This document shows positions 18,532 through 58,497 of a stretch of 64,000 bases of DNA, piece by piece. The notes under the pieces are model-generated. The model was not told the DNA's origin, searched no databases, and saw only the letters and a program-made list of their open reading frames with translations. The DNA is from Cepaea nemoralis. Lineage: Eukaryota; Mollusca; Gastropoda; Stylommatophora; Helicidae. Both the position numbers and the translations under genes were made by a program. The stretch lies in NCBI GenBank assembly GCA_014155875.1, contig JACEFZ010026878.1, positions 1-64,000 of the forward strand. The letters run 5' to 3'. The first letter of the stretch is position 1. The number at the start of each line of letters is the position of its first letter.

Positions 18532-18648
18532 TTTCTTTCTGAAACTGATAATCCACAGTGCCGAGTGTGTTGGTACAGACATAACGGTCGCAGCTATTCC
18601 TATAGTCCTCATGGCCGACGGGATGGCATTCGCCATTAAGCTGGCAAT
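18532..18648 (-). CDS. Exon E: four-cysteine module exon of a multi-exon host gene
   Basis: A 117-nt internal exon. The acceptor AG at 18650-18649 is followed by AT TGC; the donor is GTATGT after position 18532, so both boundaries are phase 1. It encodes 38 codons plus a split codon with CQLNGECHPVG, then NSC-DRYV-CTN: spacing C-x5-C-x11-C-x4-C. Key shared residues with the sister exons are the HPVG/YPVG after the second Cys and the CTN at the fourth. It is the last exon of the series in the direction of transcription within this window. Cys-rich modules of this spacing are usually extracellular. The pattern recalls von Willebrand C-like modules, but I do not assign it to that family. There is no evidence of expression. 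Confidence 0.72.
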
Positions 18649-18786
18649 CTATGTGTCAGACAGACAGCTGAATCAGCTCAGTTTGTAAGTTAATCATCAT
18701 CATCACCTTCAAGTACCAAGTGCTTAACTGTATGGTGTATAAACAAGTCATATATTTATGTGTTTCTGTACATTAATCTCAGCAGA

Positions 18787-19195
18787 TGCAAGAAATATTA
18801 CGGAAGTTAAATGTAGAATAGCCGACGCAATAGCGGCAGTTCACAACATGAAGAACATTCTCTTTAATATTTATGACTCAAACCAGATGAGGAAAAGCCT
18901 TCTTAAGAGCTGTATTGAGCCAGTCCTGATATACGGAAGGAATCTTGGACTTATAAATAAGACAAGTATGAAATTATGTGGAAGCTGTGGAGTTGTTTAA
19001 ATAGAATAACGATGAGAACACCGTGGACGGATAACACGAATATTGAAGATATCTGTACAGACTGTATCTTACTAGGACAACTGGTGACTCGTATCAGAAG
19101 AAGAGACTGTTCGCATTCCTGTAACACGTCACTAGAAGGGAAAATCTGTAGTATAATCCACCATGTGAATTCCAGCTCACGGCAAGAGGGCCTCT
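18787..19195 (+). pseudogene. Old LINE ORF2 fragment beside exon E
   Basis: Contains EVKCRIADAIAAVHNMKNIL, then SLLKSCIEPVLIYG and a decayed tail. These are the thumb/connector motifs of RTE-like LINEs (compare EEIRLRIAMAKVAFSKMKNI at 58698-59304). It includes one copy of the GAAGTTAAATGTAGAATAGC stretch that is amplified into a satellite elsewhere in the window. The same fragment lies next to exons B, C and D, so the insertion is older than the exon duplications. Confidence 0.75.
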
Positions 19196-19306
19196 AAGCG
19201 AGCGTCTATGCTTTGTATATAGCATTTAATTGTACAAATACGTATTTCATTCACAATTTCCAAGACATATCATACACACACACTCACTCACTTACAAAAA
19301 GTCGCT

Positions 19307-19538
19307 TAAAAGTCGACACGGTCGACTTTATTGCACCGAGTTTTATCCCATATGGCTCGGTCTCTTTCCGCAGCGCGGAAAGCGTCGCATAAAGCACGAA
19401 CTCCGTAGCTTTTAGCGACGACCCACAGGAGTCTCCGAAGCATTTAACTCGTAAACCGAAGGACGCGGCCCGGAATCTAGCCCACAACCTTCGGAGCACG
19501 AGTCAAACGGCTTGACCACTTCGCCACAGAGACTCCCA
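19307..19538 (-). mobile_element. tRNA-derived SINE, copy 1
   Basis: Read on the minus strand it begins with a tRNA-like head: TGGCGAAGTGGTCAAGC fits an A box and the AGATTCCGGG stretch a B box. The body includes CGCGCTGCGGAAAGAGACCG and the 3' part ends near TCGACTTTTAAGCGAC. It shares most of its length with 27188-27420. No clear target-site duplication is seen for this copy. Short open frames across both copies are incidental. Confidence 0.75.
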
Positions 19539-19552
19539 GACACTCCACAGAC

Positions 19553-19591
19553 ACACACACACACACACACACACACACACACACACACACA
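19553..19591. repeat. (CA)n microsatellite
   Basis: ACAC run next to the SINE head. Confidence 0.95.
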
Positions 19592-19629
19592 TTAATTTGG
19601 AAAGAAGGTAACTCACAATTAAATGTGGT

Positions 19630-19800
19630 TACCTTCATCAGAGAGCTATGGTCCACATTCTTTATCCATGTCATGAGAAGGGGAAAGATGGGATCCGTCA
19701 TGATACCAGGAAAGCTGGAGGAGAGGAGAGGCAGGCGAAGAACGAGAGAGAAGAGGCTGTACAGTTGTACACAGGTAACATCAGTGGGAGTTGTAACACA
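19630..19800 (+). pseudogene. LINE ORF2 C-terminal remnant
   Basis: FFIHVMRRGKM and GKLEERRGRRRTREKRL resemble the FGHFMRRNEL...GKIEGNRPRGRPR segment of the RTE-like LINE at 58698-59304. It is too short and decayed to say more. Confidence 0.5.
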
Positions 19801-56060: not shown

Positions 56061-56064
56061 GGAC

Positions 56065-56925
56065 ATGTATCGTCTGAATGGAACTACCCAGGCCTGCCGT
56101 GGGACACTGTATCGTATAAATGGAACTACCCTGGCCTGCCGTGGGACACTGTATAGTATAAATGGAACTACCCAGGCTTGCCGTGGGACACTGTAACGTC
56201 TGAATGGAACTAACCAGATCTGCAGTGGGACACTGTATCGTATAAATGGAACTACCCTGGCCTGTTTTGGGACACTGTAACGTCTGAATGGAACTACCCA
56301 GGCCTGCAGTGGGACACTGTATCGTCTGAATGGAACTACCCAGGCGTGTTTTGGGACACTGTATCGTCTGAATGGAACTACCCAGGCCTGCAGTGGGACA
56401 CTATCGTCTGAATGGAACTACCCAGGCGTGTTTTGGGACACTGTAACGTCTGAATGGAACTACCCAGGCCTGCAGTGGGACACTGTATCGTCTGAATGGA
56501 ACTACCCAGGCGTGTTTTGGGACACTGTATCGTCTGAATGGAACTACCCAGGCTTACTGTGGGACACTGTATCGTCTGAATGGAACTACCCAGGCTGTAC
56601 TGTGGGACACTGTATCGTCTGAATGGAACTACCCAGGCTTACTGTGGACACTGTATCGGTCTGAATGGAACTACCCAGGCTTACTGTGGAACACTGTATG
56701 GTCTGAATGGAACTACCCAGGCTTACTGTGGAACACTGTATCGTATGAATGGAACTACCCAGGCTGTCTGCGGAACACTGTGTCGCATAAATGGAACTAC
56801 CCAGGCTGTCTGCGGAACACTGTATGGTCTGCATAATGGAACTACCCAGGCTGTACTGTGAAACACTGTATCGTATGAATGGAACTACCATGGTCTGCCG
56901 TGGGACACTGTATTGTCTGCATGTT
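56065..56925. repeat. 42-bp minisatellite
   Basis: About 20 units (TCTGAATGGAACTACCCAGG, then CCTGCAGTGGGACACTGTAT). The period is a multiple of three, giving SSEWNYPGLQWDTV repeats in one plus frame (56428-56622). Small indels shift the frame between blocks, so coding is unlikely. Confidence 0.95.
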
Positions 56926-56929
56926 GACA

Positions 56930-57955
56930 TTTCGTGATTTATTTCATTTCATTTATCTTCCGCAATTTTAATGCCCGGCAAGCGACACCGGAAGAAGGTC
57001 TATACTTCTAAAACATCGCACACAAGGAAGCAAGTATCTCACATTTTAGCAGACATTTTTAGTTAAATTGGTACTTTTCATATTTTAGACATGGCAACTC
57101 CCTCTGGTTTACGACCTTCAATATTTTCATTAAATAATAGTTTTAAACAGTTTTTGATTATAGTTATTCTGATTTAAAGGACTTTGTGAAGGATTCTAAA
57201 CTGACAGCACACAGTTAATGTGGTTATTCAGTTACAATAAATTATTTAGCTGGGAGTTATAATGGAAAAGAAAACTAACAGTGGAAGTTCGTCATCATGA
57301 CGAATAATGCTTGCTCTAATGGGCCACGCTTGTGCTCCAAAGTTTGCTTTGCAGCCTATCAAAAATACTCTTAGTAGTATTTTGTAAATAGCAATAAACA
57401 GAAAGGGCATATATTAATTGTCAATCTAGAGCAAATATGCCAAGTATTTTCCGGATTTTCTCGATTTTGTGTGAAAATCACATGCTTCAAAATATACAGT
57501 TATAATTATTTGTAGGTGGTTTTAATGAGCAATTATTATGATATTGGTGAAGAAAAGGGGTGTTCTTATCATTATTCAGTAAATTTAACAAGATTATCTT
57601 CAATGAATCAGAAACCAATTTGAACAAGTTGAACCAATTCTGATGTACACAAGCGAATCATTGACACTTAGCAGACTCTTGGTGTATTAGCGGATATGTA
57701 GTGTTATAGAAGAATGCTATGATCATAGTGGACGTAAAACAAAAGTAGTGAATATGTTTTGAAATAAGTTGACCCACAATAATTACTCCTATACAAAGTA
57801 ACAGTTCACATTCTGTAGGCATGTCACGTGAAGGGGAAATCTAGAGTTTGCGTGACAACACGAAAGCTGGAGTACGTCGTGACAACGGTAAAGCTGGAGT
57901 ACGTCGTGACAACACGAATGCGAGCAGTTGGTCAAAGACAGAGTAGAGGAAGTGC
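56930..57955. other. No gene recognised
   Basis: AT-rich sequence. A short duplicated stretch CTGGAGTACGTCGTGACAAC occurs twice at about 57870-57915. Confidence 0.4.
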
Positions 57956-57959
57956 AGTT

Positions 57960-58061
57960 GTGTGTGTGTGTGTGTGTGTGTGTGTATATATATATATATA
58001 TATATATATATATATATATATATATATATATATATATATATATATATATATATATATATTT
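57960..58061. repeat. (TG)n/(TA)n microsatellite
   Basis: TG run followed by a long TA run. Confidence 0.97.
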
Positions 58062-58371
58062 GTTTTTTTCTCCGCGTTTCCATCCTGTTTCAGGATATTG
58101 CGGTCAATATCAGCATCTTTCAGCTGTATGTTGATTTCTAAGCGCTAGATTACGCTCATCAGCTACGCCACGGCTTTCTGAGTGACCGGCTCCATACTCT
58201 CATAAGTCACTGGAACGACTCGAACCGCTTCCAATTCTCGTGCGCTCACGTCAGCCACGAGAGTATTTGGGGTTACGGAGAAAGCTGCTATATATGTATT
58301 TCATTGTCAACAGTCAGTGATATGCGGCATAAAATATTAAAAAAAAAACTATATATGCATATATAACCTAC

Positions 58372-58497
58372 TCAGTTTCGTTGGAGCCATTTCAAAGAAC
58401 ACCTGACCTTCCGATTCGACCTTTGTGCACGTGTATTCTGAACAGCTGCTGTTGGCGATCTCTCCCTCATCATAACATGCTCCATTCCAAGAGCACC
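58372..58497 (-). CDS. Exon A: four-cysteine module exon of the host gene
   Basis: A 126-nt internal exon, the first of the series in the direction of transcription within the window. The acceptor TTGCAG is followed by GG TGC at 58497; the donor GTAGGT follows 58372. Phase 1 at both ends. It encodes CSWNGACYDEGEIANSSC, then SEYT-CTKVESEG and a hydrophobic FF segment: spacing C-x5-C-x10-C-x4-C. The NSS before Cys 3 is a possible N-glycosylation site. Its flanking intron does not share the repeated context of exons B-E, so it is an older or separate copy. A vestigial acceptor plus ATTGC lies just upstream at 58626. Confidence 0.72.
   Translation of the reverse strand, partial: GALGMEHVMMRERSPTAAVQNTRAQRSNRKVRCSLKWLQRN

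What the first reader, a model, noticed from the sequence alone, without database searches (positions are those of the whole stretch)
18532..58497. A host gene built from symmetrical single-exon four-cysteine modules
Five minus-strand exons, 58372-58497, 42979-43095, 37637-37753, 27945-28070 and 18532-18648, each carry acceptor-AG, two bases, TGC at the start and a GT donor in phase 1 at the end. Lengths are 126, 117, 117, 126 and 117 nt, all multiples of three, with no stop in any. The encoded modules share C-x5/6-C-x10-12-C-x4-C, a YPVG/HPVN motif after Cys 2 and CTN/CT after Cys 4. Seen in the sequence: the signals and the codons. Inferred: a secreted, tandem-repeat protein with more exons outside the window. 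I do not recognise the family; the nearest resemblance is to small von Willebrand C-type modules.
Basis: partly seen in the sequence, partly recalled or inferred. Interest (0 to 1): 0.88.

Follow-up and report, generated by a model that had tools for sequence, protein, structure and literature searches.

The report
Large family of half-VWC exons
The five exons are real, and they belong to a genome-wide family of hundreds of similar exons in what is probably a snail, each encoding a small four-cysteine module that looks like half of a known protein domain (VWC).

Summary
Confirmed: five minus-strand exons, 117 or 126 nt, phase 1-1, stop-free, four cysteines each; shuffles give 0.025 per strand. 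They are not one isolated gene. The 173-kb contig holds nine modules in two divergent arms. Four capped searches of the animal's own 3.47-Gb genome give 337 places on 81 contigs, 246 of 256 neighbours on the same strand. The 40 scored copies of an intron flank (of 205 candidates) all sit beside a module, 39 intact, one frameshifted: tandem duplication, not a transposon. The first 25 residues match the first half of VWC domains of the same genome without a gap. From published VWC disulfides (PMC6270503, passages) I predict C1-C24 kept, one bond lost, and a new C7-C19 bond. Recent copies are strongly constrained (pN/pS 0.08), so the modules are functional; older paralogs have pN/pS 0.81 and exons less alike (0.70) than flanking introns (0.75-0.81). 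Most likely: extracellular tandem half-VWC proteins that diversified after duplication. Secretion, splicing and function are unproven. New variant of a known kind.

The parts
58372..58497 (-). module m1 (N-type), 126 nt, phase 1-1, CSWNGACYDEG...
   Evidence: own-genome search with it gives 141 matches
42979..43095 (-). module m2 (C-type), 117 nt, CEFEDNCYPVG...
37637..37753 (-). module m3 (divergent C-type), 117 nt, CTYGKTCYPVN...
   Evidence: own-genome search gives 9 matches
27945..28070 (-). module m4 (C-type), 126 nt, CKDENNTCHPVN...
18532..18648 (-). module m5 (C-type), 117 nt, CQLNGECHPVG...
   Evidence: own-genome search gives 150 matches, none with a stop
43096..43190 (-). conserved upstream intron flank of m2
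37754..37848 (-). conserved upstream intron flank of m3
28071..28165 (-). conserved upstream intron flank of m4
18649..18743 (-). conserved upstream intron flank of m5; the flank of a typical copy (L041) matches 40 scored places, all beside a module, this one among them

Best explanation
The five exons are part of a very large, tandemly duplicated family of single-exon protein modules in a (probably gastropod) animal. Each 38-41-residue module is a stand-alone version of the first half (subdomain 1) of a von Willebrand factor C (VWC) domain. Shown: exon anatomy, phase 1-1 symmetry, genome-wide copy number, clustering on one strand, invariant cysteines in the copies examined, intron flanks that travel with the exon, strong constraint between recent copies, and exons less alike than introns between older paralogs. 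Inferred: the exons of a run are spliced in order (an N-type block, then a C-type block) into extracellular multi-module proteins; because the exons are symmetric, copies can be gained, lost or skipped without breaking the frame; each module is held by C1-C24 (the conserved VWC bond) and a new C7-C19 bond that replaces the bond to the missing second half; loops diverged after duplication and were then kept, most plausibly because the copies bind different partners (microbes, prey, predators or mates).
For: Anatomy: (30 of 30 similarity-found loci L020-L049 give a 117/120/123-nt phase 1-1 exon with four cysteines). Copy number and arrays: 150; 141; 9; 150 scored of 314 candidates, all E<0.03; union 337 places on 81 contigs, 246 of 256 neighbours on the same strand, N and C types (named by the query that found them) in blocks, 179 of 241 against a shuffle mean of 149.7 and 0 of 2000 shuffles as high. 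Few stops: 448 of 450 matches are stop-free (one place can be matched in more than one call). Function: in 15 pairs of recent copies 28 synonymous and 10 replacement differences, pN/pS 0.08. VWC subdomain 1: gapless match of columns 1-25 to VWC exons of the same genome, hhalign score 17.4, reached by 1 of 100 column shuffles and 0 of 100 shuffles that keep cysteine columns; of the 5 VWC exons whose match begins at Cys1, 4 start AG + 2 nt + Cys1 as the modules do. Disulfide logic: CV2 VWC1 bonds 9-31, 29-38, 26-60, 43-61, 50-64 (PMC6270503, passages); module C1, C19, C24 fall on Cys9, 26, 31, while both 29 and 38 are absent. The second VWC of NELL2 shows the same C-x4-C (alignment). Divergence of paralogs: exon identity 0.700 against 0.808 and 0.790 in the adjoining 60 nt, 220 of 287 pairs with the exon less alike than both flanks; M2a over M1a, p 0.004. 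Sequon just after Cys4 in 19 of 28 modules.
Against: hhalign probability is only 17.8%; Pfam gives no hit above cut-off for any of 28 modules. The AlphaFold model is weak (pLDDT 64.8, pTM 0.36) and has no structural match. Diversifying selection is not proven: synonymous sites of paralogs also differ more than introns (pS 0.27-0.33 where introns differ 5-20%); only one site has P(w>1) above 0.9 and most sites fit w=1, in my own implementation on one fixed tree; and recent copies show the opposite, constraint, with exons more alike than introns (2.2% against 4.8% different). No signal-peptide exon, last exon or transcript was found.
Confidence: 0.6

Rival explanations
1. Mutually exclusive or optional exons: the arrays are libraries from which one or a few modules are chosen per transcript, in the manner of arthropod Dscam (recalled), giving many isoforms from one locus.
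For: The exons examined are symmetric and of nearly equal length; the upstream intron is shared by copies genome-wide; TGATGA at -54 to -64 in 20 of 27 C-type loci and TCATCA-type repeats downstream in 27 of 27 flank the exon and are complementary (counted from its rows).
Against: Flank pairing energies are not clearly beyond shuffles (z below -2 in 4 of 30, mean about -0.6); no constant exon or docking site was identified; shared flanks are also expected from duplication, since similarity reaches 300-600 nt upstream in 79 and downstream in 119 of 324 pairs.
Confidence: 0.2
2. A mobile element or its remains that carries the exon, so that the copies are not a functioning gene family.
For: Hundreds of copies with flanks about 75-81% identical; the contig holds several reverse-transcriptase fragments.
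Against: The places found lie on 81 of 26,579 contigs, 246 of 256 neighbours share a strand, the flank does not occur without a module in its 40 scored matches, 148 of 150 scored matches of one query lack stops, cysteine sites have w=0, and recent copies are constrained.
Confidence: 0.03
3. Ordinary functional multigene family: paralogous exons diverged in the usual way, and the introns look more alike only because gene conversion or unequal crossing-over homogenised them; no diversifying selection is needed.
For: Recent copies are under strong constraint and their exons are more alike than their introns; synonymous divergence of paralogs also exceeds intron divergence; 80% of sites fit w=1 and only 7% fit w above 1.
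Against: In 231 older pairs with introns under 20% different, exons differ by 26.6% against 15.1% for introns and pN/pS is 0.81; conversion would have to stop at the exon edges on both sides.
Confidence: 0.3
4. An unrelated four-cysteine fold that resembles VWC subdomain 1 by chance.
For: Weak profile probability, no Pfam hit over cut-off, weak model without structural match.
Against: Six landmark positions in register without a gap, shuffled controls at 1 and 0 of 100, same exon start as 4 of 5 informative VWC exons of the same genome, three of the seven weak Pfam families are SVWC/VWC2L and one is fibronectin type I.
Confidence: 0.25

Closest known systems
VWC domain (Pfam PF00093), subdomain 1, as in Crossveinless-2, procollagen IIA, NELL2
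   Same: C1, G5, G11, aromatic 14, C19 and C24 in register; exon starts two bases before Cys1; the weak model has a beta-hairpin about three residues later than in CV2
   Different: Second half absent, so 4 instead of 10 cysteines; Cys29-Cys38 pair missing; an extra Cys at position 7; below Pfam detection
SVWC, single-domain VWC (Pfam PF15430)
   Same: One of 28 modules at E 0.047
   Different: About 40 residues instead of 66 model positions, 4 cysteines, tandem instead of single; no genome match over the cut-off
Conotoxin gene superfamilies (as a pattern of gene evolution, not as a relative)
   Same: Introns conserved within a superfamily, with simple repeats, also between toxins of different cysteine scaffold (PMC3862624, passages seen)
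   Different: Here phase 1-1 module exons in long same-strand runs; nothing found here says toxin
Tandemly expanded C1q-domain proteins of bivalves
   Same: Very large tandem expansion of a small extracellular domain in molluscs (PMC6835236, title and start of abstract in the search listing)
   Different: Unrelated domain; here the duplicated unit is an exon with its flanks

Membership tests
VWC (PF00093) | Pfam profile match above cut-off | tested here: not met
   0 of 28 modules; joined five-module protein 0 families
VWC (PF00093) | subdomain 1 landmarks C1, G, G, W/Y, C19, C24 in register | tested here: met
   A2 against A3, columns 1-25 without a gap; score reached by 1 and 0 of 100 shuffles
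VWC (PF00093) | ten cysteines with CxxCxC and CCxxC, two subdomains | tested here: not met
   exactly four cysteines in 28 of 28 modules; no second half before the donor
VWC (PF00093) | three-stranded sheet of subdomain 1 | tested here: inconclusive
SVWC (PF15430) | profile match above cut-off | tested here: not met
   best E 0.047 in 1 of 28; genome best E 0.5, none over cut-off
SVWC (PF15430) | single domain with eight cysteines (recalled) | tested here: not met
   runs of four-cysteine modules
Mutually exclusive exon cluster (Dscam type) | exactly one exon of the cluster per transcript | not testable with these tools
   no RNA data
Mutually exclusive exon cluster (Dscam type) | base pairing between intron elements | tested here: inconclusive
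   only pairing of the two flanks of one exon was tried; z below -2 in 4 of 30
Transposable element | dispersed copies and element flanks without the exon | tested here: not met
   40 of 40 scored flank copies (205 candidates) beside a module; 246 of 256 neighbours on one strand
Secreted protein | signal-peptide exon ending in phase 1 | tested here: inconclusive
   scans between the two arms on both strands and comparison with two other loci gave no convincing candidate

The most novel reading that the evidence does not exclude
A gastropod has turned half of a VWC domain into a free-standing disulfide-rewired building block, multiplied it to several hundred frame-neutral exons in clusters that reach a megabase, and uses duplication, loop divergence and optional exon use together as a repertoire of recognition proteins.
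Probability: 0.15. Interest if true: 0.85.

Novelty: new variant of a known kind. Interest (0 to 1): 0.62.

Why it matters
If the modules are half-VWC units, they show how a two-part disulfide domain can be cut in two and the orphaned cysteine given a new partner, which is testable in one structure. A family of hundreds of symmetric module exons, constrained between recent copies but with paralogous exons less alike than their introns, would be a new large system in which to ask how animals diversify extracellular proteins. Neither Pfam nor the protein collection searched recognises it, although that collection holds gastropods.

Tried and rejected

Ascertainment: the exon finder requires the four cysteines, but all 30 loci brought in by similarity passed it; they are the best-scoring matches. 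Rows dropped: L020 and L037 (same places as m5 and L051) and two low-complexity hits (39 kept); for, 11 near-identical or same-place loci (30 kept, L021 and m5 still nearly identical), N-type modules, m3, L021 and near-identical copies (25 kept). Pairs share members and are not independent. Census coordinates were typed into.
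Full report
Observation. The cysteine spacing is as described; the P-V motif holds in four of five and CT after Cys4 in three of five. Four of the five (m2-m5) share about 95 nt of upstream intron, so they are duplicates of one exon with its flanks; m1 belongs to a second type.

Surroundings. The window is the first 64 kb of a 172,977-bp contig, C24960, of a 3.47-Gb assembly in 26,579 contigs. 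The rest of the contig holds four more modules: a1 at 64222-64347 on the minus strand (68% identical to m1), and on the plus strand p1 at 126889-127014, p2 at 147436-147558 and p3 at 157587-157706. The contig therefore has two divergent arms, each beginning with an N-type module (a1, m1; p1) and going on with C-type modules. A profile search of the six-frame translation found these nine and nothing else below E 1.1.

Genome-wide family. Searching the same genome with m5 gave 150 matches (212 candidates, 150 scored), with m1 141 (182 candidates, 150 scored), with m3 9, and with a typical C-type module 150 of 314 candidates, all at E below 0.03. Of these 450 matches two contain a stop. A query with p1 gave 34 matches, one with a stop, mostly weak (not added to the census). 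The union of the first four is 337 places on 81 contigs; 246 of 256 neighbouring places are on the same strand, with a median gap of 17.6 kb, and N and C types, named by the query that found them, come in blocks (179 of 241 neighbours of like type; 2000 label shuffles averaged 149.7 and none reached 179). Contig C18346 alone carries 30 places over 1.36 Mb, on both strands. All 30 loci cut out around the best m5 matches contain an exon of 117, 120 or 123 nt in phase 1-1 with four cysteines, most with a very similar acceptor sequence. A 160-nt piece of upstream intron finds 40 scored places (205 candidates); 39 end beside a module of the census and the fortieth beside a module with a frameshift. 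The exon and its intron flanks have been copied together, in tandem, which makes a transposon as the carrier very unlikely.

What the module is. Twenty-eight modules (A2) have exactly four cysteines each; spacing 5-11-4 in 21, 5-10-4 in 4, 6-11-4 in 2 and 6-12-4 in 1. Pfam gives nothing above cut-off; of seven weak families, each hit by one member, one is SVWC, two are VWC2L and one is a fibronectin type I domain. Eight true VWC exons of the same genome, all over the Pfam cut-off, align with the modules over columns 1-25 without a gap: Cys1, Gly5, Gly11, the aromatic at 14, Cys19 and Cys24 coincide. The score of 17.4 is reached by 1 of 100 column shuffles of the VWC alignment and by 0 of 100 shuffles that leave the cysteine columns in place; the reversed alignment scores 7.6. 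The reported probability is only 17.8%, so this is support, not proof. Of the five VWC exons whose match begins at Cys1, four start with AG, two bases and the codon of Cys1; a GT in phase 1 lies within 10 nt of the domain end in all eight, but a bare GT is weak evidence (read by eye).

Evolution. Two regimes appear. In 15 pairs of recent copies (exons at most 7% different; probably alleles or young duplicates, not independent) there are 28 synonymous and 10 replacement differences, pN/pS 0.08, and exons are more alike than introns (2.2% against 4.8% different): the modules are functional and constrained. In 231 older pairs with introns under 20% different, pS is 0.315, pN 0.254, pN/pS 0.81, and exons differ by 26.6% against 15.1% for introns (binned). 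Among 324 pairs aligned in register, identity is 0.808 in the 57 nt before the exon, 0.700 in the exon, 0.790 in the 54 nt after it, and 0.75-0.80 out to 600 nt; in 220 of 287 pairs with both flanks the exon is less alike than either (the outer bins favour closer pairs). A codon model of my own writing on 25 C-type modules and one fixed tree gives an overall w of 0.79; M1a puts 13% of sites (the four cysteines and Gly11) at w 0 and the rest at 1; M2a adds 7% of sites at w 2.8 (p 0.004), with one site certain. So the scaffold is fixed, paralogs differ in the loops, and paralogous exons have diverged more than their introns, while recent copies are held. Divergence after duplication followed by constraint fits; so does homogenisation of introns by gene conversion, and raised synonymous divergence speaks for caution. 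Conserved introns within superfamilies, even between toxins of different cysteine scaffold, are on record for conotoxin genes (PMC3862624, passages); the comparison is of pattern only.

How it probably works. Most likely each same-strand run, or each N-block-plus-C-block within it, is a gene for an extracellular multi-module glycoprotein (a sequon follows Cys4 within five residues in 19 of 28 modules). Symmetric exons let module number change without frame damage. Stable disulfide scaffolds carry loops that differ between copies, which suits binding of different partners. Secretion, joining of exons and the partner are not shown: no signal-peptide exon, no last exon and no RNA were found.

Comparison and novelty. 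It is not a VWC or SVWC member by their defining tests (full cysteine set and profile cut-off not met), but it works, in my reading, like VWC subdomain 1 used alone. Neither joined-module query found a relative in 5.8 billion proteins, although the collection holds several gastropods; because that search needs shared five-residue words, absence from those gastropods is not proved. I call it a new variant of a known kind.

Noticed in passing
window 1-4866 and 4871-9738: Palindrome of two 4.87-kb arms, 98.6% identical with almost no spacer, at the very end of the contig; its ORFs look like reverse transcriptase/RNase H pieces (by eye). It may be a hairpin read or assembly artefact.
   Followed up: partly
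window 1-958 and 8783-13775: Large 21-bp minisatellite (about 45 and 250 copies) that reads as long ORFs in several frames; a similar array lies on C24281 (L051).
   Followed up: no
window 46660-51396: Retroelement of Ty3/gypsy type (type recalled) in three overlapping ORFs; a 99% identical protein region lies on an unnamed 17.8-kb ENA contig, nearest named relative in Biomphalaria glabrata at 56%.
   Followed up: partly
C24281:82907-86020 (L021) against window 17900-20121: 96% identical copy of the m5 locus that stops matching left of window 17900; an allele with a structural difference or a recent duplicate, with two further modules downstream.
   Followed up: partly
flanks of C-type modules, e.g. 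window 18333-18488, 27834-27911, 42920-42955: TGATGA repeats before (20 of 27 C-type loci) and TCATCA-type repeats after (27 of 27) the exon, complementary to each other; pairing energy not clearly beyond shuffles.
   Followed up: partly
C8263:571-589 kb and C9410:187-293 kb: Two clusters of ordinary VWC exons in the same genome, the possible source family.
   Followed up: partly
L057 (C11865:56400-56800): A module copy broken by a frameshift, one of few decayed copies seen.
   Followed up: yes
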